Of a DNA stretch of 64,000 nucleotides, positions 7,502 through 60,816 are shown piece after piece. A program made the position numbers and the translations under genes. The stretch lies in the NCBI GenBank assembly GCA_963718745.1, contig OY970370.1, positions 1,178,001 to 1,242,000 of the forward strand. Direction: 5' to 3'. Each line of letters starts with the position of its first letter. Within the stretch, counting starts at the first letter, position 1. The notes beneath the pieces were generated by a model. The model saw only the letters and a program-made list of their open reading frames with translations, ran no database searches and was not told the origin of the DNA. The DNA comes from Fermentibacter sp963718745 [NCBI: Candidatus Fermentibacterota bacterium]. Lineage in GTDB: Bacteria; Fermentibacterota; Fermentibacteria; Fermentibacterales.

Positions 7502-7523
7502 GCGGAAGGCTCGCCGAAAGGAA

Positions 7524-7549
7524 CCGGCCCGGGGACGACCCCGGGCCGG
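7524..7549. terminator. Perfect 11-bp-stem hairpin between convergent genes
   Basis: CCGGCCCGGGG at 7524-7534 and its exact complement at 7539-7549 enclose a four-base loop. The hairpin sits in the 70-base gap between the end of addA (plus) and the end of the C25 peptidase gene (minus), so it can serve both directions. The following plus-strand sequence is only moderately T-rich (CTGCTTTC). It is the cleanest terminator-like structure in the window. Confidence 0.8.
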
Positions 7550-7571
7550 CTGCTTTCAGGGAAGCTCTGGT

Positions 7572-9779: not shown

Positions 9780-9835
9780 CTCGGCTCCCTTCTGGTATGC
9801 ATGCGGGGAATGAAGGACGTATCGTATGTAAAATA

Positions 9836-9853
9836 CCCGGTGCCCGCACCGGG
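9836..9853. promoter_or_regulatory. GC-rich 18-bp dyad in divergent promoter region
   Basis: CCCGGTGC (9836-9843) and GCACCGGG (9846-9853) form a perfect dyad with a two-base centre. It lies between the divergent starts of the peptidase (9779) and the patatin protein (9879), next to the only AT-rich run there (TATGTAAAATA, about 9825-9835). A shared operator is possible, but the -10/-35 elements are not clear enough to call. Confidence 0.35.
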
Positions 9854-9878
9854 GTAAAGTCTGCCGCGGGGGTCTGAA

Positions 9879-41895: not shown

Positions 41896-42068
41896 GGATT
41901 CTCGCCTCCAGAAGTGCCCCGTATGCAAAGGAATCGCACGGCAATATAATTTCGGCTGGGATCGAAAGCTCCGGATCGTCGCGGGGGACTGGCCGCGGGT
42001 CGGGGGAACGGGCGGCGGACGGCGTGTCCGTGCACATCAGAGATGCTCCTGGAGGTGGCGCGACGGAG

Positions 42069-45125: not shown

Positions 45126-45134
45126 CGGAGGAAA

Positions 45135-47739: not shown

Positions 47740-48947
47740 AACATCAGGCCGTACCTGAACGAGGCTATCGGTCCGATGACCGGCACCGAATAGATGAACC
47801 AGGCCAGACCCAGCCAGAACAGGCGGTCCAGCCGCCTCCTGACGGATCTCGACAGGATTGCGGCGAGCAGCGCGATCCCCAGCGGCATCTGGACGAGGGT
47901 CGAGAGGCCGGCGTAGAGCAGCGGCTTCCTGTCTGTCGGCGTGGTTCCGAGATAGGGCCTGTGCGCGTCCAGGTTCACGAAGAACTTGGGCCATCTGGTG
48001 AATTCGAAGTATGCGACACGCATGGGATTCGACCTCAGGGCGTCGATTGTTACCGCTCTGAATACGCTGTCCCTGACCCCGTAGTCGATCCGCCCGTCCA
48101 CGCTCGAGATGGTCTCCAGGCTGTCCCTGAACAGCCAGAACTTCTCCCCGCCCACTCCCACGCCATGGTAGTCTGCCATCTGGACCGTTCTGCCCATGGG
48201 CTCGAACGCGTCCTGCGTGGTCATTCCAGGCATCCCGAACGCCGCCATGTTGTGCGCGCGCAGCAGCAGGTATGCCGTCAGGCAGACGACCGCCAGCGCG
48301 GAGGCGAACACGGCCCTCGCCTTCCTGCCGGGACGGGGCGGGATGAAGACGAGCGCGAAATAGATCGAGGGGGCATACAGGACTGCTGGCTTGAGAAGCA
48401 GCGCGGCTGCGAAGCACAGCCCGCCCAGGAGACCGTGGAGCAGCGCCCGGGGGATTCCGGTCCCCGGTCCGGTCCGCAGCCACAGCAGTCCCGAGAAAGC
48501 GATGAACATGGAGACTATCACATCGGGTATCAGGTAGGAGGAGTAGATGATCCCCGACGGCAGCAGCAGGTAGTACGCCCCGGCCCAGACGGCACGTGAT
48601 CTCCCGAGCAGGGGTCTCGATGCCGCGATGACGACCAGGGCGGTGAACAGGTCGGCGATCTGCTGGATCAGCATGGTGGCCGTCCATCTGGGACCGGCGA
48701 GGTCCCTCGTGGCCAGCAGCAGCATGGGGTAGCCCGGCGTGCGGAACAGGGGCTGGTCCTGGGTTCCGTCCTCGAGGTCGGCCGTTGCGTGCAGGTATGA
48801 ATAGGTGTCCGTGTAGAATATCCTGCCCTCCCAGGAATCGCTTCCGGGGTTCCCGATGAGCAGCAGGGCTGCTATGCGGAGCAGGAGGACCGATGCCATG
48901 ACGGCTGCCGGAACCTTCGTCCTGGTGTCCGGGAGCGCCACCTTCAC
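47631..48947 (-). CDS. GT-C membrane glycosyltransferase-like protein, paralogue 2
   Basis: A 438-residue polytopic protein related to its convergent neighbour. Shared blocks: FYTDTYSYLHATADLEDGTQD, RTPGYPMLLLA, SYLIPDVIVSMF, TTQDAFEPMGRT, DGRIDYGVRDSVF, TRWPKFF and FRYGLMFYW. The DTYSY acidic motif occupies the same place after helix 1. GTG 48947 overlaps the flavoprotein stop as GTGA. Codons further up, to 49478, give a shadow of that gene. It is the last gene of the long minus-strand operon that begins near 59.1 kb. Transfers a sugar at the periplasmic face; acceptor unknown. Confidence 0.75.
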   Translation of the reverse strand: MKVALPDTRTKVPAAVMASVLLLRIAALLLIGNPGSDSWEGRIFYTDTYSYLHATADLEDGTQDQPLFRTPGYPMLLLATRDLAGPRWTATMLIQQIADLFTALVVIAASRPLLGRSRAVWAGAYYLLLPSGIIYSSYLIPDVIVSMFIAFSGLLWLRTGPGTGIPRALLHGLLGGLCFAAALLLKPAVLYAPSIYFALVFIPPRPGRKARAVFASALAVVCLTAYLLLRAHNMAAFGMPGMTTQDAFEPMGRTVQMADYHGVGVGGEKFWLFRDSLETISSVDGRIDYGVRDSVFRAVTIDALRSNPMRVAYFEFTRWPKFFVNLDAHRPYLGTTPTDRKPLLYAGLSTLVQMPLGIALLAAILSRSVRRRLDRLFWLGLAWFIYSVPVIGPIASFRYGLMFYWLLVPFLFVCSEELARRLRDAIPAAQSSGKNVSP

Positions 48948-50308
48948 CCGGCCGCCCCGGAGCTGCGGTCGAGGAGCGAGGCGGCAAGGCCTCGGGACTC
49001 CATTATGCAGTGGTCCATGTTGAAGTACTCGAACCGTCCGAGTCTGCCGTGTGTGACCAGGTTCTCGAAGGGAGCCAGTGCGGACAGGGCCCTTGCGGTC
49101 GCTTCCTTGTAGTCGAGGGTTCTCAGCGGGTATGTGTTCTCCCAGTCGACGACCTTCCAGCTGCCCACGGCCCCCGGCTTCAGGAGCCCGTACTTGGACA
49201 GACCGGTCACGGCCAGGTCCAGCAGCTCCTGCCCGGAGGCTCCGGAGATCCTGTCGCTTCCTGTCGTCGTGAACTCCACGCAAAGCGACGTCCGGCCCTC
49301 GGGGGACATCAGCGGGCTCATGTTCCCGGGCTCGCTCACCCGGTTGAAGGCGGTCCTGTCGTCGGCGAAGTAGACCCACGGGGTGGAGCCGAATACTGTC
49401 TCCTGATCGAGCGTGAGCAGCAGGAACCGGGTGGAGATGTAGACCAGCCCGGGATCGGGAAGCCCGAGCATCCGGCACAGGTCCTCGAGCGAGATGCTGG
49501 ACAGCACGAAGTCTGCATCCATGCCCGTATCCGCCGTATGGATCTCGAAGCCGCCCTTTCCGGGCGTGATCCCCTCCACGGGCTCGGCCGCATGGAGGGT
49601 GAAGCGGGGGTCCGAGGCGCAGTAACCCAGGAGGGCGTCGATTATGGTCCCGCTTCCCCTGTCGGGATAGAAGCAGCGGGAGTTCAGGAAGGGGTCCTCC
49701 TCCGCCTCGAGAGCCTTAGGCTTCATACCGAGGAAGGTCCGCTTGAACAGGTCCCAGAGTGTGAAGACTCCTATCCTCTGCCTCCCGAAATCCGCGGAGA
49801 TCTTGCTCCCGGGGACGCCCCACGTCTTCTCGGTGAAGGGGCCGAAGTAGATGTCGTAGAGCTTCCTGCCGAACCTGTTCCTTATGAAGTCCTCGAAGCT
49901 GTCGTCCCTCCACTCCGTGAACAGGGAAGCCACCCTGCCGCCGAGGAAGCTCGCGGCGCATGCGGCGGAGGTCCATGGAGGGACCCCCTTGAGTATGTCC
50001 AGGCCCTTCATGGGGTAGGGGATGAAGTGGTCCCGGAAGACCACTCTCGGTTTGTAGATGCGCGCGCGCAGCGCGTCGCCGAGTAGCACCGAGAGGAATT
50101 CGTTGAAAGAGCGGTCTACGGAGTGGATGTTGTGCGGTCCGAAGTCGAAGGAGAACCCGTCGAGATCGACGGTCTGGCACAGCCCTCCGGCGGTCGCCCT
50201 CCTCTCGAAGAGGTGTATCTCCATGTCCCTGTCCCCGCCCTCGGTCTGCAGCAACCAGTAGGCCGCGGACAGCCCGGACACGCCTCCACCCACGACTGCG
50301 ATCCTCAT
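48944..50308 (-). CDS. FAD-dependent oxidoreductase (UDP-galactopyranose mutase/amine oxidase-like)
   Basis: A 454-residue flavoprotein. The FAD-binding Rossmann motif is VGGGVSGLSAAYWLL (6-20), followed by ATAGGLCQTVDLDGFSFDFGPHNIH and PYPMKGLDIL. The central WGVPGSKISADFGRQRIG and the C-terminal YFNMDHCIMESRGLA are found in flavoproteins of polysaccharide loci, related to UDP-galactopyranose mutase and protoporphyrinogen oxidase. It may act on a nucleotide- or lipid-linked sugar by oxidation or ring contraction. It starts in an ATGA overlap with the upstream UPF0104 gene and ends in a GTGA overlap with the GT-C gene. Confidence 0.8.
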   Translation of the reverse strand: MRIAVVGGGVSGLSAAYWLLQTEGGDRDMEIHLFERRATAGGLCQTVDLDGFSFDFGPHNIHSVDRSFNEFLSVLLGDALRARIYKPRVVFRDHFIPYPMKGLDILKGVPPWTSAACAASFLGGRVASLFTEWRDDSFEDFIRNRFGRKLYDIYFGPFTEKTWGVPGSKISADFGRQRIGVFTLWDLFKRTFLGMKPKALEAEEDPFLNSRCFYPDRGSGTIIDALLGYCASDPRFTLHAAEPVEGITPGKGGFEIHTADTGMDADFVLSSISLEDLCRMLGLPDPGLVYISTRFLLLTLDQETVFGSTPWVYFADDRTAFNRVSEPGNMSPLMSPEGRTSLCVEFTTTGSDRISGASGQELLDLAVTGLSKYGLLKPGAVGSWKVVDWENTYPLRTLDYKEATARALSALAPFENLVTHGRLGRFEYFNMDHCIMESRGLAASLLDRSSGAAG

Positions 50309-51339
50309 CCGGATCCCTTCATCAGCCGCCTCCGCGCGGAATTGAAATCGGCGTAAGCCCTTCGCCAGTCGTTGCCGTGCAGGTACTTCATGCCCACCAT
50401 GAGCCCGATCAGCACCTGGGGCACGAACTGCAGGGCGTGGACGATTATGGGCAGCGAAGCGTAGTCGGAGAAGGAGTAGCCCATGAGTCCCAGGCTGGTG
50501 GCGACCGCCGCGTGGTAGGAACCGATGAAACCGGGAGCAGATGGGATGAGGGCTGCGAAATAGACCAGGACTATGGATCCCAGCACCCCGAGCGCCGACA
50601 CCGAGGGCAGCATGGTCCGCAGACCGCAGTAGGCGGTCACTATGGTGTAGGTCCACAGGAGGAAGGTGGTCGCGAGAACCTTCATCCCCCGGGTGCCCGT
50701 TGCCATCTCCCTCATCTGGGTCGAGAGGGCGTGAAGGATCCTCGAGATCCCTCCCCCGGCTCCACCCCTCCTCGAGTGGAGCAGCGCCGCGGTACAGACG
50801 AGGGCGATCGCAAGGAGCACGATGAGCGCTACAGACAGGATTCGACCGTACTGCCTGACGGCCAGGAGCGCGAACAGTATGCCGATGAGGGCCAGGAAGG
50901 ACAGATCCATGAGTGTCTCGCCGATGAGCGACGCTACGGTCCTGCGATAGGGGAGGCCGGCCTTGTCCCTCAGGTACTGCACCCTTATCGCATCGCCCAT
51001 CCTCAGGGGGAACAGATTGTTGCAGGCCTTGCCGATATACATCCCCCCCGCTGTCGGACCGAACGGACCTCCCCCCAGGAGCGCGCGCCATCTGGCCGCA
51101 CGGACCAGGGGTTCCAGGCAGGCGAGGATCACGTAGAAGGCCGTCCATCCGGGGTCGATATGCGAGAAGCTCGACAGGAGGCTTTGTGGATCGATCCTGG
51201 AGTACATCAGGAACAGTATCAGGATCGAGACGGACACAGGCACGGCGGTGCGAAGGATCTCGGTCCACCGGGCTCCGGCCCGTCGTTTCCCGCCTTCCTC
51301 CCCGGGAAGGGTCTCCCGGTGCTCTTCGTGCGTGCTCAC
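50305..51339 (-). CDS. UPF0104/LPG-synthase-TM-like flippase domain protein
   Basis: A 344-residue membrane protein with about eight helices matching the lysylphosphatidylglycerol synthetase transmembrane (UPF0104) family. Strings are VSILILFLMYSRIDPQ, EPLVRAARWRALL, YIGKACNNLFPLRMGDAIRVQYL, SLIGETLMDLSFL and LIPSAPGFIGSYHAAV. The PxRxGDxxR pattern in the third block is the family hallmark. In glycan loci members probably move lipid-linked sugars or lipids. GTG 51339 overlaps the upstream stop (GTGA) and follows a cytoplasmic basic leader. Confidence 0.84.
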   Translation of the reverse strand: MSTHEEHRETLPGEEGGKRRAGARWTEILRTAVPVSVSILILFLMYSRIDPQSLLSSFSHIDPGWTAFYVILACLEPLVRAARWRALLGGGPFGPTAGGMYIGKACNNLFPLRMGDAIRVQYLRDKAGLPYRRTVASLIGETLMDLSFLALIGILFALLAVRQYGRILSVALIVLLAIALVCTAALLHSRRGGAGGGISRILHALSTQMREMATGTRGMKVLATTFLLWTYTIVTAYCGLRTMLPSVSALGVLGSIVLVYFAALIPSAPGFIGSYHAAVATSLGLMGYSFSDYASLPIIVHALQFVPQVLIGLMVGMKYLHGNDWRRAYADFNSARRRLMKGSG

Positions 51340-52262
51340 AGCAGCTCGCCCCGTCTGTAGGCCGGGAAGTACCCGCCGTCGTGCACGGGCGAGCCCGTGA
51401 GCTCGGCGTAGGCCGCCCGGTCGATCACCAGTCCCAGCAGGTGGTTCTCGGCGGTCGAGTTCGAGAACTGCTTCTTGAATCTGAACAGGCCGTCCTCGCC
51501 CCCGGAGCCCGATGCGGAACCGAGCAGGCACCTGCGGCATCCGGTCTCCGCGAGCCACTTCAATTCCTCGGAATAGAGCCGGTAGTTGGCGCTGCAGTCG
51601 TAGGCCCTTGCGTCCGAGGCGTGGAGGTGGGAATAGGCGTCCGGGCCGTCGACGATCCAGATGTGGATCGCGTGGATCCCTTCGCCGTCGCGGAGAACCG
51701 CGAGGAGCACGCCGTCGAGTGCGAAGAGCCCCTGGAAGTACCCGGCCGAGAGGGCCTTGAGCCCCGCGAGCCCGTGCCTCTCGACGAGGATGCTCCAGAG
51801 GCGCATCCAGTCGTCCAGCAGGGCGAGCCTCTCCTCCTGCACGAACCCGACCTCGAACCCGAATTTCTCGGAGGCCCTCCGTGAATAGTAACAGACCTTC
51901 TCGGGGAAGAGGTTGGCGGAAGCAAGCGAGTTGTCGACCATGAGGTGCGTCTTCCACCTGATCGCAACGTCCCATCTGTCTGCGGAGGGGATGAATCCCG
52001 TCAACGGATCGGTGACTATCGTCGCCGAAACCATCCCGCCGGCCCCATCCGACTTGAGGCTCTCGAGGAGCGCATCCTCGTCGGATATCCTGAACATGGG
52101 GTAGGGGTACACGAGGTCTTCGCGGCTGGTCCCGGGAATCCTCCGGCGGAGGAGGCTCCCGACTTCCTCATGGAGAAGCAGAGGCGTCCCGAAATCCACC
52201 AGGCACCCGCAATACTCCGTGGAGTTGTAGAAGCTCACGCAGCCCCCCGGACAGGTGTGCAC
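51336..52262 (-). CDS. GNAT/FemAB-like N-acyltransferase
   Basis: A 308-residue protein whose C-terminal half (GLFALDGVLLAVLRDGEGIHAIHIW, ASDARAYDCSANYRLYSEELKWLAE, SGSGGEDGLFRFKKQFSN) matches the double-GNAT FemAB/BioF2 type. These enzymes transfer an acyl or aminoacyl group to an amine. The GGEDGLFRFKKQF block corresponds to the final conserved G...F-K-F element. The first codon is GTG 52262 without a clear ribosome-binding site. GTG 52238, after GGGGGG, may be the true start. It shares a GTGA with the next gene and is 67 bases from the methyltransferase gene. It might transfer the acyl group made by the neighbouring KAS III and reductase. Confidence 0.65.
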   Translation of the reverse strand: MHTCPGGCVSFYNSTEYCGCLVDFGTPLLLHEEVGSLLRRRIPGTSREDLVYPYPMFRISDEDALLESLKSDGAGGMVSATIVTDPLTGFIPSADRWDVAIRWKTHLMVDNSLASANLFPEKVCYYSRRASEKFGFEVGFVQEERLALLDDWMRLWSILVERHGLAGLKALSAGYFQGLFALDGVLLAVLRDGEGIHAIHIWIVDGPDAYSHLHASDARAYDCSANYRLYSEELKWLAETGCRRCLLGSASGSGGEDGLFRFKKQFSNSTAENHLLGLVIDRAAYAELTGSPVHDGGYFPAYRRGELL

Positions 52263-52329
52263 GTGCTTTCGGACGGCAGGGGGCGGGGGCCGGATCCGGC
52301 TCCCGTCTGCGTGGGAACGGCATGGATCG

Positions 52330-53052
52330 TCAGAAGTGCTTCTTCCCCGCGACGCCGAACAGGTCGGCGCAGTACTGCGGAACGTCCTCCCCGAGCCTGT
52401 AGAATGCCTTTATGGCGTCCTCTCCGAGAGCGTACATCTGAGCCTCGCTGAGTGGCTTGAGGTAGATCCCCTTCATCTCCAGCACCTTGAGACCCGCCAG
52501 GGAGAGATGCTCGGTCAGCATGTCGACGGTATAGAGCCTGCGGTGTCCGACCATGATATCCTTAGGCGCCAGGGTCCTGTAGCTGTCCAGCAGACCCATC
52601 TGCAGGCCGGCCCGCCTGTTCAGGGACATGCAGTTGGGGACGGCGACGAAGAGGAGCCCGTCGTCGGCCAGCAGCGCCTCGAGCCGCCCCAGGCACTCGA
52701 CGGGATCGCTGACATGCTCGAGCACATGCATGAGGAAGATGTTGTCGTACTTTCTCCCTGGGTCGAACTCCTCGATGAGGGCCCTGTGGCAGACGACGTC
52801 CCGCCCTGTCCTCGATCTCATCAGCTCCAGGTTGCTGGAGGAGGCGTCGAGGACCTCGAGACCCTCGAAATGCTCGATCAGGAACCTGGTGGAATACCCT
52901 TCCCCGCAGCCGACCTCCAGGGCGCTCGACCTCTTCCTTGCCGTCCTCAAGATCAGTTCGTTGCACCTGTCGATGAGGAGATAGTCCATGTAGTCGCCCT
53001 TCTCGTAGAAGGACCGCAGATCTTCGAGCCTTTCGGTTTCATCTGCGCACAT
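52330..53052 (-). CDS. Class I SAM-dependent methyltransferase
   Basis: A 240-residue methyltransferase. LEVGCGEGYSTRFLIEHFEG is motif I for S-adenosylmethionine, EVLDASSSNLELM supplies the acidic residue of motif II, and YDNIFLMHVLEHVSDP is the typical motif after that, with VGHRRLYTVDMLTEHLSLAGL following. In this operon it may O-methylate a sugar, as in methylated O-antigens or flagellar glycans. AAGGAG lies seven bases before the ATG. The group DegT, acyltransferase, KAS III, reductase and methyltransferase resembles sets that make methylated N-acyl-amino sugars. Confidence 0.82.
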   Translation of the reverse strand: MCADETERLEDLRSFYEKGDYMDYLLIDRCNELILRTARKRSSALEVGCGEGYSTRFLIEHFEGLEVLDASSSNLELMRSRTGRDVVCHRALIEEFDPGRKYDNIFLMHVLEHVSDPVECLGRLEALLADDGLLFVAVPNCMSLNRRAGLQMGLLDSYRTLAPKDIMVGHRRLYTVDMLTEHLSLAGLKVLEMKGIYLKPLSEAQMYALGEDAIKAFYRLGEDVPQYCADLFGVAGKKHF

Positions 53053-53117
53053 GCAACACTCCTTCTGAAGGGGTTCGACCGGAATGTCTCCGGCAAGGGC
53101 CAGGCGGGTGGAATCCT

Positions 53118-53810
53118 CTACAGCCCTCCGGAGATGGTTATGCAGGATCCTGTCACATAGTCCGAGTTCTCGAGGAACACGAGCGCGTTGGTCAGGTTCC
53201 CAGGATCGCCGAAGTCACCCGTGGGGACGGAGGATCTGAAGCTATCCCTAACCTGGTCGGGGATTTCCATGGACAGCCCCGTGTTCATGAATCCGAGTTC
53301 AATGTAGTTGACTGTGATCCCCATCCGGGCGTTCTCGACTGCGGCAGTCCTGGACAGCCCTCTCAGGGCTTCCTTCGAAGAGCTGTAGGCTGCCGTGCCG
53401 GGAGACCCGATCCTGCCGGAGACCGAGCCGACCAGGGCGATCCTCCCCCAGCGGGCAGGCCTCATCCTCCCGAGGAATGCCGAGAGCACGAAGAAGGCTC
53501 CGTTCAGGTTCACGTCCACGACCCTGAGCCAGTCCCCGGGTGTGAGCCGGTGCAGTACCCTGTCCACCTTCAATGCAGGCATGTAGGTAAGGAAGACCCG
53601 CGACTCGCCGGCGAACACGCTTTCCGCAAGGGCTTCGCACTCCGCCGCCTTCGTCACGTCGCATCTGCGGGACTCCACGTTCGAAAGCGGCTCGGGAGGT
53701 GTCTCGTTGTAGGTGGAGACCACCCTCCTCCCGCTATTCGCGAGTCCTGCACATACCACCCTGCCGACGTGCGACGATCCTCCTACCACGACATGGAGAG
53801 GTGCGTCCAT
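53118..53810 (-). CDS. FabG-like SDR reductase
   Basis: A 230-residue classical SDR. VVVGGSSHVGRVV (8-20) is the nucleotide-binding motif with GGSSHVG in place of the usual TGxxxGxG. NLNGAFFVLSAF, ALVGSVSGRIG with the catalytic Ser, and AYSSSKEALRGLSR (Tyr/Lys about 146-150) follow, ending with a FabG-like YVTGSCITISGG. Its place beside a beta-ketoacyl synthase III suggests reduction of a 3-ketoacyl thioester to a 3-hydroxyacyl group, but sugar keto reduction cannot be excluded. Seven bases separate it from the KAS III stop. Confidence 0.82.
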   Translation of the reverse strand: MDAPLHVVVGGSSHVGRVVCAGLANSGRRVVSTYNETPPEPLSNVESRRCDVTKAAECEALAESVFAGESRVFLTYMPALKVDRVLHRLTPGDWLRVVDVNLNGAFFVLSAFLGRMRPARWGRIALVGSVSGRIGSPGTAAYSSSKEALRGLSRTAAVENARMGITVNYIELGFMNTGLSMEIPDQVRDSFRSSVPTGDFGDPGNLTNALVFLENSDYVTGSCITISGGL

Positions 53811-53817
53811 CAGGTTG

Positions 53818-54813
53818 TCACCACCTCAGGAGCGAGGCGCCCCAGGCCCAGCCCGCCCCTACTGCTACGAATCCTACGATCTCTCCCGGGTGTATCGCTC
53901 CGCTCCTGTTCACTTCGTCGAGGAGAAGAGGGATCGTGGCACTCGATGTGTTCGCGTAGCGGTCCATGTTGGTGTGGAATCTCTCGAACGGAATCCCGAG
54001 GCGCCGGGCGCTCTCCTCGAGGATCCGGATGCTCGGTTGATGCGGTATCACATGGTCGACATCGCAGGGTTCGAGGCCGGACTTCGCCAGCACGCTCCTC
54101 AGCGCGTCAGGGATCACCTGGACTGCGGTCTCGTAGACCTGGTGCCCGTCCATCCTGTAGAAGTGCATCCCCGCGGCGACGGTCTCGGGAGTCGCCGGGA
54201 GCTCGGAGCCTCCTGCGGGAACAGTGAAAGCCTCGTATCCTCGGCCGTCCGAGTACAGCCTGGAGCAGAGGAAGCCGGAGTCGTCCCCGGTGTGGGAGAG
54301 TATGACCGCGCCAGCCCCGTCTCCGAAGAAGACGCAGTCGCGCCTGCTCCAGTCCGTGATCCGGGAGAAGGTGTCGGCGCCGATCACCATTACCTTGTGC
54401 GACATGCCGGTGCCCACGAACTGCGCACCGACCGTCAGTGCATAGATGAAGCCTGCGCATACGGCGTTCACGTCGAACGCCGCCGCGTTCGTTGCGCCGA
54501 GAGCAGCCTGGATCCTGGGGGCGGTGGCCGGCGCGATCCGGTCGGGAGTGGCGGTGGCAAGGATTATCATGTCCAGTTCGTCTGCCGGGAGTCCCGCGTT
54601 TTCGAGCGCCCGCCGTGCAGCGCATATGGCCATCGTCGAGGTGGATTCGGAGGATCCTGCGATGCGCCTTTCCGCGATGCCTAGCTTGTCGCGGATCCAG
54701 GCGTCGGATGTGTGGACGCTGGACTCCAGTTCTCCGTTAGTGACGCGGCGCTCCGGAGCGCAGCTGCCGGTTCCCACGATCTTGACACGTCGGACGAATG
54801 TCTCCTGGGCCAA
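53818..54813 (-). CDS. Beta-ketoacyl-ACP synthase III (FabH-like)
   Basis: A 331-residue KAS III. The triad is complete: Cys119 in DVNAVCAGFIYAL, His about 256 in VIPHQPSIRIL and Asn about 286 in YANTSSATIP. KIVGTGSCAPERRVTN opens and GEIVGFVAVGAGWAWGASLLRW closes, as expected. KAS III condenses acyl-CoA with malonyl-ACP. Set among sugar genes, it probably makes a short 3-ketoacyl thioester for attachment to an amino sugar instead of serving bulk lipid synthesis. Start TTG 54813 lies one base after the acyltransferase stop and has GGAGAG upstream; earlier codons lie inside that gene. No acyl carrier protein gene is visible in the operon. Confidence 0.88.
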   Translation of the reverse strand: MAQETFVRRVKIVGTGSCAPERRVTNGELESSVHTSDAWIRDKLGIAERRIAGSSESTSTMAICAARRALENAGLPADELDMIILATATPDRIAPATAPRIQAALGATNAAAFDVNAVCAGFIYALTVGAQFVGTGMSHKVMVIGADTFSRITDWSRRDCVFFGDGAGAVILSHTGDDSGFLCSRLYSDGRGYEAFTVPAGGSELPATPETVAAGMHFYRMDGHQVYETAVQVIPDALRSVLAKSGLEPCDVDHVIPHQPSIRILEESARRLGIPFERFHTNMDRYANTSSATIPLLLDEVNRSGAIHPGEIVGFVAVGAGWAWGASLLRW

Positions 54814-54814
54814 T

Positions 54815-55429
54815 TCAGCTCTCTCCGATCCGGCAGTGAGGACAGCCGTACTTCCCGTCCGCGAGACCCTTTCGATACTGCTCCTCCAGTTGCAGCATCC
54901 TGAAGCTGCGCTTCTTGAGGAACTTCGCCGGGACTCCACCGTGGATCTCCCCGTCGGGGATGTCCCGGACTACGAGCGAGCCCGCTCCGGCACAGCTGCA
55001 CTCTCCCATCGTGACGCCCGGGAGTATCGTGACCGACGCTCCTGCGAGCGCGTGCTTCCTGAACAGCACCGGCTTCCAGGCGAACTCCCTCATGTCCCAC
55101 GGGACGTTCGGATTGGTCAGGTGTTCTCCCGAATAGTCGTCTGTCCCGCCATAGATGACTCCGCCCGCGGCGATGGCCGAGAAGTCCATGAACTCCACCC
55201 CGGCGGACGCCTCGATGAAGCAGTGCGCCGCGATGTGGACGAACCAGCCTATCTTCAGGTACCCGTCCGAACACCCCGACAGGACGCAGAAGTCGTCGAT
55301 GCGGACGTGGCTGCCTATCTCGATCCGTTCCGTGTTGTAGAGGGAGGCCTTCCTGCTGATCTTGACCGCGTGCCCGAAGGACTTGAGCCCGAGTTCCGCA
55401 AGCTCCTGTTCGGTGTAGAACGAGTTCAT
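54815..55429 (-). CDS. Left-handed beta-helix (hexapeptide) sugar N-acyltransferase
   Basis: A 204-residue trimeric-type acyltransferase. Hexapeptide turns are seen through IEIGSHVRIDDFCVLSG, IGWFVHIAAHCFIEASAGVEFMD, AGASVTILPGVTMGECSCAGAGSLVVRDIPDG and GVPAKFLKKRSF. The His in HIAAHCF and the flexible FRKHAL loop resemble VioB/PerB/WbqL-like acyltransferases working on 4-amino sugars. The C-terminal CPHC may bind a metal. It follows the DegT-like gene by nine bases and precedes KAS III, placing the enzyme where acyl thioester and amine meet. Confidence 0.83.
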   Translation of the reverse strand: MNSFYTEQELAELGLKSFGHAVKISRKASLYNTERIEIGSHVRIDDFCVLSGCSDGYLKIGWFVHIAAHCFIEASAGVEFMDFSAIAAGGVIYGGTDDYSGEHLTNPNVPWDMREFAWKPVLFRKHALAGASVTILPGVTMGECSCAGAGSLVVRDIPDGEIHGGVPAKFLKKRSFRMLQLEEQYRKGLADGKYGCPHCRIGES

Positions 55430-55438
55430 CGAGCCCCC

Positions 55439-56461
55439 TCAGACCCGGTCGCCGGGCTGGGCCGTGAGAAGCGCCGCAATCGCCGCCATGTCCTCGACGC
55501 CATAGCGGTGGTCTACCGGCAGCGCGAGGATCGTCCTGCCCAGGTCCTCGACCTGCTCGGGCATGTCGGGCCAGAAGTGGGGAACGAACACCCCCTTCGA
55601 GATCATGTTCCGCCTGAAGAAGTTGAAGCTGTCCGGCGCCACCGGGAACGGGAAGCACAGCGGAACCGTGGCGCAGGGCGGAGGTCCGTCTGGAAGCGCC
55701 CCGGAAAGCGCCGCGTAGTTGGCCTTTCGCGCTGCGCACGCGGCATCGTGGTCGAACGAGTCGAACAGGGAGGAGGCGAGGTCCGACATCCGGTAGGGGC
55801 CCAGGGGCATGTCCCTCTCCAGCCTGCGGAAGGTGTCGAGCGCGTCGCCGTGGGGATACTCCAGCCTGATGCCATGGCATGACATGCGGTCGCCGAACAC
55901 CGTCTGGTCGACCTTCAGGAGGGGAACGGGCGGCTCCTTGAGGCGGCTGCCCCTGCCCAGAACCAGGATCCCTCCGTCGGGAACCCCCAGGAACTTCCGG
56001 GGCGAGTAGAAGGCTGCGAACCTGTCCGGACAGGGAGCGTAGAGGGACTGGGCATAGTCGAGGAGGACCCTGCACCCGGAGATGTCCATCATCTCCTCGA
56101 GCGCCTCGAAGTCGGGCATGTACACGCCGAAGTAGCTCGGGACGACCAGAAGGGTGCCCTGCTTCGCGGTGTACGACAGGTTCAGCCAGTCTATCCCGAA
56201 GCCCGGGTTGACTTTGTAGGTTCGCCAAGCCGCTCCTGCATTCTCCACCGCCCGGTAGACGACCGGACAGATGTATCCGGGCATCAGCACGTCGACGATC
56301 CCGTTCGCCCGTATCAGCTCTGCGACTGCGCTCCTGGCGTCGTAGAACCTGCGCCCCCCCGCCAGATGGGCTGTCGAGAGGCCCGGTTCACGAGCCCCGC
56401 AGGGGAGATCGATGGGGAAGAAGCCGCCGTAGGTCTTCCCGGAGTGGATCTCGTCAGGCAT
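55439..56461 (-). CDS. Divergent DegT/DnrJ-like PLP-dependent enzyme
   Basis: A 340-residue fold-type I PLP enzyme. GRRFYDARSAVAELIRANG, VLMPGYICPVVYRAV and VLLDYAQSLYAPC (PLP-binding Asp) lead to the expected lysine in YSPRKFLGVPDGGILVLG. It is shorter and more divergent than the preceding DegT protein, especially after the Lys, but YSPRKFLGVPDGG is a good active-site match. A second amino-transfer step, or a non-aminating PLP reaction, is possible. GGAGG precedes the ATG, which overlaps the upstream gene by eight bases. Confidence 0.75.
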   Translation of the reverse strand: MPDEIHSGKTYGGFFPIDLPCGAREPGLSTAHLAGGRRFYDARSAVAELIRANGIVDVLMPGYICPVVYRAVENAGAAWRTYKVNPGFGIDWLNLSYTAKQGTLLVVPSYFGVYMPDFEALEEMMDISGCRVLLDYAQSLYAPCPDRFAAFYSPRKFLGVPDGGILVLGRGSRLKEPPVPLLKVDQTVFGDRMSCHGIRLEYPHGDALDTFRRLERDMPLGPYRMSDLASSLFDSFDHDAACAARKANYAALSGALPDGPPPCATVPLCFPFPVAPDSFNFFRRNMISKGVFVPHFWPDMPEQVEDLGRTILALPVDHRYGVEDMAAIAALLTAQPGDRV

Positions 56462-57662
56462 GCCCGGCCTCCTTCAGTTTCGCGCGGACCCTTCCGGCGT
56501 CGGAGCCTGCCAGCCGTACGGCGTCTCCGATCCACCGGGCGGCCGTCGGAATGACCGATTCTCCGTTGGGCAGCGATATGACCATCTCCGAGAGCCTGTC
56601 CGTCACGGGCAGGCTCCGGCTCTTGTTCGGGAATGTGCTGCGGTAGGGCTCCATCCTGTGGCAGCCCGGGTAGAAGTATCTCCTCGCCAGTATGTTCTCG
56701 GCCTCCAGGACCGTCACGAGCTCGTCCCGCGAGAGGCCGAAGGCCTCGGAGTCCACCGTCGCGATGACGTACTGCCAGTTCTGGTCGGTCAGCATGGCAG
56801 AAGGCTCCCTGAGGCATATCCCGGGGATGCCTTCCAGAGACTCCCGGTAGGCCTCGAAGTTGGTCCGGTTGACCTCCTTCAGCCTGTCCACCTGCTCGAG
56901 CATCGAGAGGCCCATCGCGGCGCAGATCTCCGTCATCTTGCCGTTGGTTCCGATGTAGTCGACGCGGTCCTTCTCCCGGCCCCCGAAACCGAAGTTCATC
57001 ATGAGGCGGATCCTCTCCGCCAGGCCGTCGTCGTCGGTGGCGATGGCCCCGCCTTCGAAGGTGCTGAAGAACTTCGTGGCGTGGAAACTCAGTACGGACA
57101 GCGCTCCGAGGCGGCACACCGAGACGCCTCCGGTCTCGTTCATGAATGCGTGCGCGGCATCGTAGACCACCGGGAGACCGTGCCGGGACGCGACGGCGGA
57201 GATCGCGCCGTGATCGCATGGATTCCCGTAGACATGGACGCCGACTATCGCCGAGGTCTTCTCGGTGACGAGATCCTCGATGCATCCGGGGTCGATCGTG
57301 AAATCCGACTCGCGGATGTCGCAGAACACGGGCGTGATCTCCTGCCACTGCAGCGCATGGGCAGTGGCGACGAACGTGAAGGAGGGCAGTATCACCTCTC
57401 CCCTGAGGCCCATCGCCCTGTAGGCGAGTTCGAGTGCTATCGTGCCGTTGCACAGCGGTATGCAGTGCCGTACGCCGAGCTTCTCCTCCAGCCGGGACTG
57501 GAGGATCCTCACCAGGGGGCCGTAGTTCGTGAACCAGCGGTTGGAGAACATGCAGTCGAGCAGCTCGTCGAAGCGCTTCCTGTCAGGGAGGTTCGGCCGG
57601 CCGACATGGAGTGGCTCGCTGAAGAGGGGCCTTCCGCCCAGGATCGCCAGTGTGCGGCTCAT
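56454..57662 (-). CDS. DegT/DnrJ/EryC1 nucleotide-sugar aminotransferase
   Basis: A 402-residue sugar aminotransferase. PNLPDRKRFDELLDCMFSNRWFTNYGP and LCNGTIALELAYRAMG give the opening, VILPSFTFVATAHAL and VYDAAHAFMN the PLP-phosphate and Asp region, and SFHATKFFSTFEGGAI the Schiff-base lysine. It most likely aminates a 4-keto-6-deoxy sugar nucleotide. GDP-4-keto-6-deoxymannose from the gmd gene at 17.1-18.1 kb is one candidate, which would give GDP-perosamine (inference). The start ATG 57662 follows GGGATGG, a weak site. It is separated from the upstream GT-C gene by 129 bases, which may hold a promoter. Confidence 0.88.
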   Translation of the reverse strand: MSRTLAILGGRPLFSEPLHVGRPNLPDRKRFDELLDCMFSNRWFTNYGPLVRILQSRLEEKLGVRHCIPLCNGTIALELAYRAMGLRGEVILPSFTFVATAHALQWQEITPVFCDIRESDFTIDPGCIEDLVTEKTSAIVGVHVYGNPCDHGAISAVASRHGLPVVYDAAHAFMNETGGVSVCRLGALSVLSFHATKFFSTFEGGAIATDDDGLAERIRLMMNFGFGGREKDRVDYIGTNGKMTEICAAMGLSMLEQVDRLKEVNRTNFEAYRESLEGIPGICLREPSAMLTDQNWQYVIATVDSEAFGLSRDELVTVLEAENILARRYFYPGCHRMEPYRSTFPNKSRSLPVTDRLSEMVISLPNGESVIPTAARWIGDAVRLAGSDAGRVRAKLKEAGHA

Positions 57663-57791
57663 ATCAGACCATCCCGCTTCTTTCGGGCCGGCGGGCGCCC
57701 GGAACACGAATGCTGTCGACCGGACTGAAGGAATACGCAATCGAGGGTCCGTCGACAACTCTGAAATCCAGGGCGGCATCGCGCCTCCGGT

Positions 57792-59135
57792 CTACGCCGG
57801 CGGATCAGGCGGCGCCTCCGCGGGCTTCCGGGCGGATCGCCCGGAGCCCTTCGCCTCGAAGTGGACGACCATGGCGGTCACGGAGCAGACGGCCATCGCC
57901 CAGTAGAAGGTGACCCCGTAACGTGTCGTTGCCAGCGGTCCGTAGATGAGGGCGGAGTAGACGAACCATCCCAGGAGGAGGAGCAGGAGAGGCTTCATCC
58001 TCCGGCGGACGCGGCCGTCCAGGAATCCCAGGCAGACCCCCGCCGCCATGAAGAGATAGACGAGGGCGAGGAGAGCCTTCCATGCGAAAAGCGGCAGGCC
58101 GGATTCCTCGATCCTCATGCTCCTCAGGATCTTGTGCGCATAGCCAAGGGAGAAGAATTTCGGCCATGACGTGAGGTGGGGCAGTAGGACCCTGATCGGT
58201 TCTGCAAGCACCATCTCCCGGGTTCTGGCCCGGTAGATGCTGTCCCTGAGTCCGAAGTCCACCCTCCCGTCGATCATGGCCAGCGAATCGAGGCCTGCGG
58301 TGAACTCCCCGCTCCAGACGGACTGCTGATCGGTGACCCCCGCGAGGATGGCTGTCCTCGCCAGCGGTTCGAAGGCGTCCTGTGTGGAATAGGCATCCAG
58401 CCCGAAGGCGCTCCTGTTGTACATCCTCCATCCGAGCGGGAGGATCGCGAACACCGACAGCATCACCAGCAGGGCGGCCGCTTTCACCCGGAGCCCGCGC
58501 CCCTTGCTGAAGGCGAGCAGCACCGCCGGGACGACGGGAGAGTACAGGAGGACCTGCTTGGACATGGCGCCGAGGGATAGGACGGCGCCGATGGCCGCAA
58601 AGCGGGCGAGGAAGGCCCCCCGGGACCCGTTCCGGAGCGTCCTCGTCCAGAGGTAGCCGGAGGCGCAGACGGCAAGGAGCGCCATCGTGTCAGGCATTAT
58701 GCGGGTCGAGAGCAGGACGTGAGGCGGCAGCAGCATCACCAGGGCGCCGGCCGGGAGAGCCGCCTTCCTGGAGCAGGTGGCGGCTGTCAGATAGCACAGC
58801 ACCCCGATGGCCAGCCCCATCGCCTGCTGTAGCAGTATGGACGAAAGCCAGGGATGGCTCCGGCTCCAGGTCAGGGCAAGGAAGGCCGGATAGAGGGGCA
58901 TGCGGACGGCCGGTTCCTCCTGCCTTCCGTCGAGCAGGTCCCCTGCATATCGGACATACTGGTGGGAGTCGTCCTCCATCGGCCAGGACCGCACATCGGA
59001 CGTCATGTAGGGCAGCCCGGCCACGATGACGAAGACGATCCTCAGCATCATCAGCAGGACGAGGAACGCCATGTGGGATGGAGGGGTGCGCCCTGAAACA
59101 GGGATCGGCCGGACGGTCGAAGCCGGTTCAGCCAA
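57792..59135 (-). CDS. GT-C membrane glycosyltransferase-like protein, paralogue 3
   Basis: A 447-residue polytopic protein, the third of the family in this locus. Helix 1 is followed by MEDDSHQYVRYAGDLLDGRQE and VRMPLYPAFLAL. Later blocks are STRIMPDTMALLA, SFGLDAYS-type YSTQDAFEPLART, DGRVDFGLRDSIYRA, LPHLTSWPKFFSLG and YGPLATTRYGVTFYW. It resembles paralogue 1 more than paralogue 2 in the last part. TTG 59135 is the first codon, without a strong ribosome-binding site. An ATG at 59072 before the first helix is the alternative. Transcribed into the amino-sugar operon. Confidence 0.75.
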   Translation of the reverse strand: MAEPASTVRPIPVSGRTPPSHMAFLVLLMMLRIVFVIVAGLPYMTSDVRSWPMEDDSHQYVRYAGDLLDGRQEEPAVRMPLYPAFLALTWSRSHPWLSSILLQQAMGLAIGVLCYLTAATCSRKAALPAGALVMLLPPHVLLSTRIMPDTMALLAVCASGYLWTRTLRNGSRGAFLARFAAIGAVLSLGAMSKQVLLYSPVVPAVLLAFSKGRGLRVKAAALLVMLSVFAILPLGWRMYNRSAFGLDAYSTQDAFEPLARTAILAGVTDQQSVWSGEFTAGLDSLAMIDGRVDFGLRDSIYRARTREMVLAEPIRVLLPHLTSWPKFFSLGYAHKILRSMRIEESGLPLFAWKALLALVYLFMAAGVCLGFLDGRVRRRMKPLLLLLLGWFVYSALIYGPLATTRYGVTFYWAMAVCSVTAMVVHFEAKGSGRSARKPAEAPPDPPA

Positions 59136-59300
59136 CCCGGACCGCCGGCAGGGCGGGGGCGGACTCCGTGCTGGAGTATGGGAAGTCCCTCTTCAGAAGG
59201 TCTCCTTTCGGCAGAATCGATTATCGTCCGGGGGGCGCCCCGGGTCATCCCCGGACGATTCTAGAGCCACGCGGATCATCTCTGCAGATGCAGGAGGAGC

Positions 59301-60008
59301 ATGATGAACATCCTGTTCGCGATCCCCTCACTCGTTTTCTTATCGACGCCCTGGATCTCGCTTCCCGTCGACGATCCCGGGCTCGTGGTCCACTCGGCCC
59401 AGCTGGTGCTGGAAGGCGGCGGGATGGTGTCCGTCATGGAGTGGCCCGTCGTGGTGGGTGCGGCGGACGATCCCGCCGTGGAGGCGATCAACGAAGCCCT
59501 CTCCTGGGAGGCCGTGACCGGACAGCCTCTGGAGGAGACGGTGGCGATCTTCGCGGACATCCAGCGGGGTTACGTCGGAGCCGACTATTTCGTGAACTAC
59601 GATGCAGGCTGTATCCTCGACATCACGATCACCACGGACTTCGTCGGGGCATATCCCTCGACCGCGTACTACTACTTCTGCTTCGACGCCTCGACGGGGG
59701 AACGGCTGCGCGCTGCGGACATCCTCGATCCGGACCGCTTCGACGAACTCGTCTCCATCCTGGATGCGATGCTGCAGGAGAACATCGGCGAGGCTGCCGC
59801 GCACTGCTGTGAGGAAGCGGACGGGGTGCCGGATTCGATCTACGAGGGCTACCGTTTCACGATCGATAACCTGGAAGCATTCACGGTGTCTGAGGACGGG
59901 GTGTGGTTCCACTACGACTTCGGCTTCCCTCACGTGATCGAGGCGGCCGAACCGGACGGAGAGCTGTTCCTGCCCGTCGCGGAGATCAGTCCCTTCCTGG
60001 CCGGCTGA
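59301..60008 (+). CDS. Exported DUF3298/RsiV-like protein
   Basis: A 235-residue exported protein with an N-terminal hydrophobic stretch MMNILFAIPSLVFLSTPWISLP. The mature part has PVVVGAADDPAVEAINEAL, YFCFDASTGERLRAADIL and the C-terminal GVWFHYDFGFPHVIEAAEPDGELFLPVAEI, which is the DUF3298-type closing motif found in RsiV and PdaC relatives. Such domains often bind peptidoglycan fragments or lysozyme. Two adjacent ATG codons (59301 and 59304) follow AGGAGGAG. Its last 23 bases overlap the end of the opposing phosphatase-fold gene. Confidence 0.7.
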   Translation: MMNILFAIPSLVFLSTPWISLPVDDPGLVVHSAQLVLEGGGMVSVMEWPVVVGAADDPAVEAINEALSWEAVTGQPLEETVAIFADIQRGYVGADYFVNYDAGCILDITITTDFVGAYPSTAYYYFCFDASTGERLRAADILDPDRFDELVSILDAMLQENIGEAAAHCCEEADGVPDSIYEGYRFTIDNLEAFTVSEDGVWFHYDFGFPHVIEAAEPDGELFLPVAEISPFLAG

Positions 60009-60816
60009 GCCCGCGGTCCCGCCGCCCGGCGGCGGGCCTGATCCTCCAGAAATGCTCCAGCTCCATGTCTTCGGGGCAATCCAGACCATGGTCCCCTGAT
60101 CCGGAGCCCGGATCGAGGTGGGCGCCGTGATCGGGTGCGAATGCCAGAGCCCTGTTGAAATCCCGCCAGAAGACGTCCGAGCCGCGAACGAGCTCCTCGA
60201 ACGATGCCAGATGCCCTTCGACGGCCTTGCGGGCAGCGGGTCCGAAAGGGTCGCCCGAGTGCAGCAGGTCGTCGTACTCCTGCTGATAGGCCAGTATGAA
60301 GTCGTGGCTGTCGCTCTCCATCAGCGACAGGGCCGTCCGTGTTACCGACCGGTCGTCGGCCTCGGAGAAATAGTCGATCGGGCGGTCCCTGAAGATGAGG
60401 TCGATGCTCGAATCCCGGACGGCGACTATGGCGACCCTGCGGCCGGCCCTCCCGAGGGCGTCGAAGAGGGTGTCGCAGCCCAGGACCGGCTTCTCGTAGC
60501 GCCTTATTCCATGGATCTCCGGGCCTGCTCCGGTGAACATGGACGCGAAGCAGACCGGGGTCTTGGGGGGCGTCATCGATCTGAGTGCGACGGAGACGGT
60601 CGTCATCGCGGCGAGAGCCTGCCGCGCAGCCGGGAAGAGCCTCGTCTGCACGCACCCTACAGCGTCCGGTGCGAATACGAGCAGCCTCTCGACGGGCAGG
60701 GCTCCGGCTGCGGCATCCAGTATGCGTCTGGAGGGAGGACACTCGCTCCTTCCGGGAGGATCGACCCCCATGAGCGCGGCTATGCCCGGTGAGACCGAAC
60801 GGATGTCCTCTATCAG
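59986..60816 (-). CDS. Alkaline-phosphatase-superfamily protein
   Basis: About 276 residues. FAPDAVGCVQ (metal Asp), TPPKTPVCFASMFTGAGPEIHGI and the C-terminal ALAFAPDHGAHLDP and SGDHGLDCPEDMELEHFWR place it in the alkaline phosphatase/phosphodiesterase fold with DHG metal ligands. The substrate is unknown. There is no ATG until residue 16. The reading fits a CTG at 60816, which overlaps the upstream stop as CTGA, or ATG 60771. It is cotranscribed with the unknown gene upstream. It converges with the DUF3298 gene, and a CCCGCC/GGCGGG dyad lies inside its last codons. Confidence 0.75.
   Translation of the reverse strand: MIEDIRSVSPGIAALMGVDPPGRSECPPSRRILDAAAGALPVERLLVFAPDAVGCVQTRLFPAARQALAAMTTVSVALRSMTPPKTPVCFASMFTGAGPEIHGIRRYEKPVLGCDTLFDALGRAGRRVAIVAVRDSSIDLIFRDRPIDYFSEADDRSVTRTALSLMESDSHDFILAYQQEYDDLLHSGDPFGPAARKAVEGHLASFEELVRGSDVFWRDFNRALAFAPDHGAHLDPGSGSGDHGLDCPEDMELEHFWRIRPAAGRRDRGLSRPGRD

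What the first reader, a model, noticed from the sequence alone, without database searches (positions are those of the whole stretch)
53118..57662. Sugar aminotransferase operon with its own KAS III and reductase: local synthesis of an N-acyl group
Five consecutive minus-strand genes encode a DegT aminotransferase, a second PLP enzyme, a hexapeptide acyltransferase, a full-triad KAS III and a FabG-like SDR, followed by a methyltransferase and a GNAT/FemAB-like protein. Seen: motifs and spacing (gaps below ten bases). Known: 3-hydroxyacyl amides decorate amino sugars such as anthrose and modified viosamine. Inference: KAS III and the reductase make a 3-hydroxyacyl thioester and the acyltransferase puts it on the amine. 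The absence of an ACP gene leaves open whether CoA or a housekeeping ACP is used.
Basis: partly seen in the sequence, partly recalled or inferred. Interest (0 to 1): 0.75.

Follow-up and report, generated by a model that had tools for sequence, protein, structure and literature searches.

The report
Sugar-decorating operon with own acyl supply
An uncultured bacterium carries a compact set of genes that probably makes an amino sugar together with the small fatty-acid-like group attached to it, a variant of a pathway known from Pseudomonas that lacks the usual carrier-protein gene and has an extra enzyme of unknown job.

Summary
P1-P5 (57662 to 53118, minus strand) are packed with gaps of -8, 9, 1 and 7 bases. 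They encode a DesI-like sugar 4-aminotransferase, a remote DegT relative, an AntD-like hexapeptide acyltransferase, a KAS III with the Cys-His-Asn triad, and a FabG-like SDR. A methyltransferase and a GNAT_6/FemAB-like gene follow after 65 and 67 bases. The DNA is from a relative of Candidatus Fermentibacter.

The KAS III is not the housekeeping FabH: it forms a separate clade, and the three orthologues found in 42 phylum genomes all lie beside an AntD-like gene.

New are the host phylum, the lack of an ACP gene in the cluster, and P2. P2 belongs to an unnamed, divergent DegT-like family that recurs beside VioA/DesI-type aminotransferases and WbqC, including in E. coli O123/O186-type clusters; the O123 sugar carries N-(3-hydroxybutyryl)-D-alanyl. 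This hints at an aminoacyl step. The acyl chain, its carrier and P2's reaction remain untested.

The parts
56454..57662 (-). P1: DesI/VioA-type dTDP-4-keto-6-deoxyglucose 4-aminotransferase (DegT family, PLP Lys197)
   Evidence: PF01041 325.2 bits; TIGR04427 PLP_DesI top at 427.9 bits, below its cut-off of 650; best solved relative 2po3 E 1.3e-95 (that 2po3 is DesI is recalled)
55439..56461 (-). P2: divergent DegT-like PLP enzyme of an unnamed family (Asp134, Lys155), reaction unknown
   Evidence: hhalign to the P1 family 95.9%, E 5.5e-9, Lys and Asp aligned; both invariant in 10 of 10 members; homologue in an E. coli O123/O186-type cluster, 24% identity, E 1e-24
54815..55429 (-). P3: AntD/VioB-like hexapeptide N-acyltransferase
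   Evidence: 3vbi-3vbp E 4.2e-39 to 1.5e-37, next relative 1.5e-10 (that these entries are AntD is recalled); 39% identical to the acyltransferase beside vioA in an E. coli O39 cluster
53818..54813 (-). P4: KAS III paralogue (VioS-like), Cys-His-Asn triad intact
   Evidence: PF08545/PF08541; TIGR00747 337 bits against a cut-off of 292.1; clade of 4 with support 100/99, triad 4 of 4
53118..53810 (-). P5: FabG-like SDR (VioR-like), Ser-Tyr-Lys kept
   Evidence: PF13561/PF00106; S138, Y151, K155 kept in 4 of 4, N110 in 2 of 4
52330..53052 (-). P6: SAM methyltransferase, candidate VioM-like sugar O-methyltransferase
   Evidence: PF13489 65.3 bits; 34.5% relative beside a P1-WbqC-P2 cluster in Cupriavidus
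51336..52262 (-). P7: Acetyltransf_6 (GNAT/FemAB-like) protein, acceptor unknown
   Evidence: PF13480 28.7 bits, cut-off 22
50305..51339 (-). P8: flippase-like LPG_synthase_TM membrane protein (context)
   Evidence: PF03706 138.7 bits; overlaps P7 by 4 bases
48944..50308 (-). P9: FAD amine-oxidase-like protein (context)
   Evidence: PF13450, PF01593; overlaps P8 by 4 bases
57792..59135 (-). P0: PMT/ArnT-like membrane glycosyltransferase upstream (context)
   Evidence: PF02366 26.3 bits, cut-off 22.7; next to P1 also in G003 and G002

Best explanation
The operon makes an N-acylated 4-amino-4,6-dideoxyhexose for a surface polysaccharide and supplies its own acyl donor. P1 aminates dTDP-4-keto-6-deoxyglucose to dTDP-viosamine (Qui4N). 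P4 condenses a short acyl-CoA primer with a malonyl thioester to a 3-ketoacyl thioester, and P5 reduces the 3-keto group, before or after transfer. P3 moves the (3-hydroxy)acyl group to the 4-amine. P6 probably O-methylates the sugar. It is a variant of the Pseudomonas viosamine island that uses CoA or the housekeeping ACP, with an extra DegT-like enzyme (P2) that adds or processes a further group. Shown: the gene content, families, triads, co-occurrence and the separate housekeeping FabH/ACP in relatives. Inferred: the substrates, the chain length, the order of steps and P2's role.
For: Families and catalytic residues. P3 resembles the entries recalled as AntD far more than any other solved transferase. 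P4 orthologues occur in 3 of 42 phylum genomes and all 3 lie beside a P3 orthologue, which occurs in 4 of 42 at 50% identity or more (chance 3.5e-4 before adjacency). A housekeeping FabH with an ACP gene 0.76-0.81 kb away lies elsewhere in 6 of 6 genomes that I chose because they carry P2 or P3. RmlA sits directly upstream of P1 in G027. rfbA and a dTDP-glucose dehydratase follow the AntD-like and DegT genes in Ilyobacter. RmlB is found in 36 of 42 genomes at E 1e-50. P. syringae has vioA, vioB, vioS, vioR, vioM, vioT and acp; deletion of vioR removes modified viosamine and deletion of vioM its methyl (PMC3927599: abstract, passages and sections 6 and 7 read). dN < dS for P1-P5.
Against: There is no ACP gene in the cluster and no VioT-size glycosyltransferase. 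F. daniensis has P1-P2-P3 without P4/P5 and has only the housekeeping KAS III, so the acyl module is dispensable. AntD-like genes also sit in stretches where no P4-like KAS III was found: Azospirillum, Ilyobacter, Tritonibacter (10 kb either side) and E. coli O39 (8 kb either side). RmlB was not found in draft G003 at E 1e-50. Some FabH positions are changed (Phe87, Lys214, Arg235), so primer and carrier may differ; others (Trp32, Arg249, basic 256 and 257) are kept. P5 is the least conserved of the five (52% identity, window against G003). No polysaccharide structure from this phylum is known to me (recall, not searched beyond).
Confidence: 0.72

Rival explanations
1. The side chain has two parts: P2, with an aminoacyl-transferring partner (perhaps P7, FemAB-like, where other clusters have WbqC), puts or finishes an amino acid on the 4-amine, and the KAS III/SDR-made 3-hydroxyacyl group caps it, as in E. 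coli O123 N-(3-hydroxybutyryl)-D-alanyl-Qui4N.
For: Of the ten P2 family members compared, five have a WbqC gene directly upstream (Pfam) and nine have a DegT aminotransferase in the stretch viewed. The E. coli cluster VioA-WbqC-P2-GNAT-MaoC is O123/O186-type by its wzx and wzy names, and the O123 repeat carries N-[(S)-3-hydroxybutyryl]-D-alanyl on Qui4N (PMC10609480, table passage). The O121 cluster has VioA-WbqC-GNAT and no P2 match; it goes with N-acetylglycyl-Qui4N, by my recollection that its antigen equals that of S. dysenteriae D7, which the same table lists.
Against: No WbqC match in window, G001, G003 or G005 loci, and WbqC was found in only 2 of 42 phylum genomes, G013 and G026. P7 is only a weak Acetyltransf_6 match and barely similar to the G001/G003 proteins; no match to those proteins in the 14 kb of G005. 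AntD-like enzymes are recalled to act on the sugar amine. P2's substrate is unknown, and E. coli already has D-alanine.
Confidence: 0.2
2. P4 and P5 serve general lipid or signal metabolism (a second FabH/FabG) and only happen to lie in the sugar operon.
For: Taguchi 2006, seen as a reference title only, reports a KAS III homologue in a P. [quoted passage not shown]
Against: Separate clade; 3 of 3 orthologues beside an AntD-like gene; gaps of 1 base (P3-P4) and 7 bases (P4-P5); housekeeping FabH with ACP elsewhere in 6 of 6 genomes looked at.
Confidence: 0.08
3. P4 is a KAS III-like acyltransferase (as recalled for CerJ) that acylates a hydroxyl or amine itself, not a condensing enzyme.
For: KAS III-fold acyltransferases on sugars are recalled from antibiotic pathways; none was compared here.
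Against: The Cys-His-Asn condensing triad is intact in 4 of 4, P4 scores above the fabH cut-off, and a ketoreductase-like gene follows directly.
Confidence: 0.05

Closest known systems
Pseudomonas syringae pv. tabaci viosamine island (vioA, vioM, vioT, vioS, vioB, vioR, acp; PMC3927599)
   Same: 4-aminotransferase, acyltransferase, KAS III, 3-oxoacyl reductase and methyltransferase in one island; product N-(3-hydroxy-1-oxobutyl)-2-O-methylviosamine
   Different: Window has no acp and no vioT, has the extra P2, lies in a polysaccharide locus with PMT-like membrane glycosyltransferases, and belongs to another phylum. The Vio sequences were not at hand for alignment.
Anthrose pathway of Bacillus cereus/anthracis (AntD; genes recalled)
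   Same: P3 is closest to the entries 3vbi-3vbp, recalled as AntD, which N-acylates dTDP-viosamine; 3-hydroxy-3-methylbutyryl-CoA is named as involved in anthrose biosynthesis in PMC8141488 (passage)
   Different: Anthrose is recalled to use an enoyl-CoA hydratase, not KAS III plus SDR, for its donor
E. coli O123/O186-type O-antigen cluster (L050)
   Same: VioA-type aminotransferase followed by a P2 homologue; the O123 product has a 3-hydroxybutyryl group on Qui4N through D-alanine (PMC10609480)
   Different: WbqC, GNAT and MaoC in E. coli; no match to P3, P4 or P5 in the 16.7 kb viewed

Membership tests
Viosamine-island type module (VioA/B/S/R/M/acp/T) | 4-keto-6-deoxysugar 4-aminotransferase | tested here: met
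   P1 top NCBIfam DesI 427.9 bits, below the cut-off of 650; the E. coli gene annotated VioA (L052) scores 283.9 to the same model, and two DegT genes in the same place in L050 and L051 score 293.7 and 275
Viosamine-island type module (VioA/B/S/R/M/acp/T) | Hexapeptide N-acyltransferase of AntD/VioB kind | tested here: met
   AntD-like (AntD identity of the entries recalled); the VioB sequence itself was not available
Viosamine-island type module (VioA/B/S/R/M/acp/T) | KAS III with triad plus 3-oxoacyl reductase | tested here: met
Viosamine-island type module (VioA/B/S/R/M/acp/T) | Methyltransferase in the island | tested here: inconclusive
   P6 is present 65 bases downstream in window but gave no tblastn match at E 1e-8 in the G003, G005 or G027 loci
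Viosamine-island type module (VioA/B/S/R/M/acp/T) | Dedicated ACP gene | tested here: not met
   No E. coli AcpP match in the window at E 10, while the same query finds the phylum's own ACP at E 4e-20 and 5e-19; no gap in P1-P7 over 67 bases. One PP-binding gene each in G003 and G005, next to the housekeeping FabH; G027 has a second, weak one on another contig
Viosamine-island type module (VioA/B/S/R/M/acp/T) | VioT-type 1,173-aa glycosyltransferase | tested here: not met
   Longest ORF overlapping 50000-61000 is 774 codons
Viosamine-island type module (VioA/B/S/R/M/acp/T) | N-(3-hydroxybutyryl) product | not testable with these tools
   needs glycan analysis or an enzyme assay
Housekeeping FabH | The genome's only KAS III, beside the ACP gene | tested here: not met
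   (through G003, G005 and G027, since the window's own genome is not held)
DegT/DnrJ/EryC1/StrS family (for P2) | PLP Lys and Asp in the right order | tested here: met
DegT/DnrJ/EryC1/StrS family (for P2) | Pfam PF01041 above its cut-off | tested here: inconclusive
   1 of 10 members, L039, 22.3 against 19.8 bits
O123-type aminoacyl-Qui4N module | WbqC next to P2 | tested here: not met
   no match in window, G001, G003 or G005 loci; family found in 2 of 42 phylum genomes

The most novel reading that the evidence does not exclude
P2 defines an uncharacterised family of PLP enzymes that act on the side chain, not the sugar ring, of N-acylated 4-amino sugars: for example a transaminase or epimerase that makes or sets the D-alanyl (or another aminoacyl) unit on the nucleotide sugar. 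In Fermentibacterota it works with a FemAB-like protein in place of WbqC and with an in-operon KAS III/SDR pair that has no ACP of its own, giving an N-(3-hydroxyacyl)-aminoacyl sugar.
Probability: 0.2. Interest if true: 0.6.

Novelty: new variant of a known kind. Interest (0 to 1): 0.42.

Why it matters
It extends dedicated acyl-donor synthesis for N-acyl amino sugars from pseudomonads to an uncultured phylum and shows a version with no carrier-protein gene in the cluster, so the CoA-or-ACP question can be tested in vitro with a few small proteins. It also singles out P2, an unnamed enzyme family present in O123/O186-type E. coli clusters with a known O123 sugar structure, where its reaction could be worked out.

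Tried and rejected
AlphaFold model of P2 from two sequences: pLDDT 33.5, not used and not searched against structures. phmmer of P2 against the PDB gave only chance-level matches, antibody chains and a dihydrofolate reductase; a profile of ten sequences gave weak hits, sugar aminotransferases at E 0.0055-0.017 and serine hydroxymethyltransferase at 0.15-0.53. Two viral-contig scans with P2 gave no relative. Rfam and tRNA scans of the window gave nothing. I looked for a published ACP-docking residue list for FabH and found no usable passage, so those residue roles are recalled and carry little weight; the kept basic residues at 249, 256 and 257 speak against a full loss of ACP binding. KAS III as acyltransferase and as housekeeping FabH were considered and put low.
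Full report
What is there. The window is 65% GC. Its P2 gene is 85% identical to one in Candidatus Fermentibacter daniensis (L002), so the DNA comes from a relative in that phylum; no whole genome is held for the window. Nine genes in a row on the minus strand were checked. P1-P5 have gaps of -8, 9, 1 and 7 bases, P6 and P7 follow after 65 and 67 bases, and P7-P8 and P8-P9 overlap by 4 bases each. The 'below ten bases' spacing holds for P1-P5 only.

What the proteins are. P1 scores best to the DesI model of NCBIfam (427.9 bits, under its cut-off of 650) and to PDB 2po3. Three E. coli genes, one annotated VioA and two annotated DegT in the same place beside rfbA/rfbB, score 275 to 294 bits to the same model, so P1 fits a dTDP-4-keto-6-deoxyglucose 4-aminotransferase at least as well. 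P3 matches six related PDB sequences (3vbi to 3vbp) at E 4.2e-39 to 1.5e-37, with the next relative at 1.5e-10. I recall these as AntD, the anthrose N-acyltransferase; the AntD paper was seen only as a title in a reference list. P4 passes the fabH cut-off and keeps Cys112, His244 and Asn274 of E. coli numbering. P5 keeps Ser138, Tyr151 and Lys155 of E. coli FabG; Asn110 is kept in 2 of 4 cluster SDRs, the window's among them. P6 is a methyltransferase and P7 an Acetyltransf_6 protein.

The KAS III is a second, cluster-bound copy. In 42 genomes of the phylum, 36 have a KAS III match at E 0.001. Only three genomes (G003, G005, G027) have a match at 68% identity or more; all other matches are at 43% or less. 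A tree of 22 sequences (the four cluster-type proteins, 17 of the other phylum copies and E. coli FabH; the other copies, including those of G003, G005 and G027, were not put in) sets the four apart with support 100/99. P3 relatives at 50% identity or more occur in 4 of 42 genomes (G001, G003, G005, G027; G015 has a 32% match; the search listed E 1e-15 or better). The three P4 orthologues all sit next to P3; picking those genomes by chance has probability 3.5e-4, before adjacency is counted. In all 6 genomes searched for ACP (chosen because they carry P2 or P3), an ACP gene lies 0.76 to 0.81 kb from the other, housekeeping FabH (coordinates). G003 and G005 show no second ACP at E 0.001; G027 and G013 show one weak extra match each on other contigs. 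These are draft genomes. E. coli AcpP finds no match in the window at E 10 but does find the phylum's ACP in two control loci at E 4e-20 and 5e-19, and those phylum ACPs find nothing in the window at E 1. So P4 either borrows the housekeeping ACP or uses CoA.

Residues that bear on this are mixed. At positions aligned with E. coli FabH Lys214 and Arg235, the four cluster proteins have E/E/D/N and P/P/V/A; the 17 others have Lys or Arg at 214 (17 of 17) and Lys, Arg or, twice, Tyr at 235. Position 40 is Ala or Cys in the four and Lys or Arg in the 17. Against a loss of ACP binding, Arg249 is kept in all, position 256 is Arg in the four, and 257 is Arg in the four but Ala or Val in the 17. Phe87 is Ala in 4 of 4 against Phe in 16 of 17. 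The FabG positions 129 and 172 vary. That these positions bind ACP and line the primer pocket is recalled; I found no passage to cite. They suggest, weakly, a changed carrier surface and primer.

Comparison of loci. G005 keeps P1 (3' part at a contig start)-P2-P3-P4-P5-P8-P9 on one contig. G003 has P1-P2 at the end of one contig and P3-P4-P5 at the start of another, the latter beginning with the last 33 residues of a second, 58%-identical P2. G027 has RmlA-P1-P3-P4-P5 without P2; its P1 is split between two frames. F. daniensis (G001) has P1-P2-P3 without P4/P5. G002 has P1 and a P2 fragment at a contig end. Thus P4+P5 and P2 are separable modules around the P1-P3 core. The L-FucNAc-type and glycosyltransferase genes at window 41865-48947 are found in the same order in G003 and G005, which places the operon in a polysaccharide locus. 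dN/dS between window and G003, from a rough count with dS 0.75 to 1.33, is 0.11 for P4, 0.34 for P5, 0.15 for P1, 0.16 for P2 and 0.26 for P3.

Known precedent. The P. syringae pv. tabaci viosamine island has vioA, vioM, vioT, vioS (KAS III), vioB, vioR (reductase) and acp (PMC3927599; abstract, passages and sections 6 and 7 read). Deleting vioR leaves only rhamnose, and deleting vioM removes a methyl. The paper infers dTDP-N-(3-hydroxy-1-oxobutyl)-2-O-methylviosamine, and its mention of an N-acetoacetyl form leaves open whether reduction follows transfer. It lists counterparts of all seven genes in the P. aeruginosa PAK island, at 12 to 52% identity. By the tests listed, this is not a strict member: no acp and no vioT.

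The second PLP enzyme. P2 has no family model hit of its own, but its profile aligns with the P1 family (95.9%, pairwise E 5.5e-9), matching Asp134 and Lys155 to the PLP Asp and Lys. Both are invariant in all ten members collected. Its relatives were found in Cupriavidus, G013, Proteus, Acetoanaerobium, a gut contig filed as a phage, and E. coli. WbqC lies directly upstream in five of the ten (Cupriavidus, G013, Proteus, gut contig, E. coli; Pfam). A DegT aminotransferase is in the stretch viewed in nine of ten (not in the 5.8-kb gut contig; in Acetoanaerobium it is 4 kb away, with a FdtA-like gene, so named by eye, behind it). In E. coli a DNA search found the gene in 10 of 5426 genomes; I read two of the ten clusters, both with wzx named O123/O186. 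The DNA search would miss distant copies. O123 carries N-[(S)-3-hydroxybutyryl]-D-alanyl on Qui4N (PMC10609480, table and reference passages; the primary paper was seen only as a title). The O121 cluster has VioA, WbqC and GNAT and no P2 match at E 0.001; its N-acetylglycyl product is taken from the S. dysenteriae D7 row of the same table plus my recollection that the two antigens match. So in this one comparison P2 goes with a side chain that holds an amino acid other than glycine. Of the four Fermentibacterota loci with a full P2 of 57% identity or more, three (window, G001, G003) have an Acetyltransf_6/FemAB-like gene nearby. In G001 and G003 it is on the opposite strand, in G003 on the P3-P5 contig, and the window's P7 is only distantly similar to those two. 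No match to them was found in G005 or G027 loci. This is suggestive, not strong, since such genes are common in polysaccharide loci (recalled).

Verdict. Observation confirmed; mechanism probably right, already known in kind; the variant (phylum, no ACP gene in the cluster, P2) is new to me. My literature searches for KAS III with viosamine islands found one paper, on P. syringae, and three more by a looser search, of which I opened one for passages; that gave the Taguchi 2006 reference title. For Fermentibacter with surface polysaccharides nothing specific showed among ten listed of 6,595 (none opened), and for WbqC none of 12 listed papers deals with its function by title (none opened).

Noticed in passing
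window 41865-45125 (+): RmlD-like, FnlA/PseB-like and WecB-like genes in a row, probably a UDP-N-acetyl-L-fucosamine pathway; conserved next to the operon in G003 and G005.
   Followed up: partly
L048 (E. coli plasmid pLAU-OXA3, 37 kb) 2525-11399: A plasmid-borne dTDP-sugar cluster (epimerase, dehydratase, rfbA, lipopolysaccharide biosynthesis protein, DegT, GNAT, ACC deaminase/D-cysteine desulfhydrase-like, ATP-grasp, glycosyltransferase) between insertion sequences; three other E. coli records of 37-46 kb match its DegT gene.
   Followed up: no
L046 (MT838042.1, labelled Bacteriophage sp.): The record holds a glycosyltransferase, a flippase-like protein, WbqC, a P2 homologue and an epimerase-like protein (the first, second and last named by eye); it looks like bacterial polysaccharide DNA, not phage.
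   Followed up: no
L044 and L045 source records: PLSDB 'plasmids' of 4.08 Mb (Proteus mirabilis H63) and 2.63 Mb (Acetoanaerobium) are chromosome-sized and probably mislabelled.
   Followed up: no
window 54815-54850 (-): P3 of window and G003 end in a Cys-x-x-Cys tail that the G001, G005 and G027 copies lack.
   Followed up: no
L038 1-101 (G003:C35): C-terminal 33 residues of a second P2, 58% identical to the window's, beside P3-P5, while G003 has another P2 at 81% identity on C12.
   Followed up: partly
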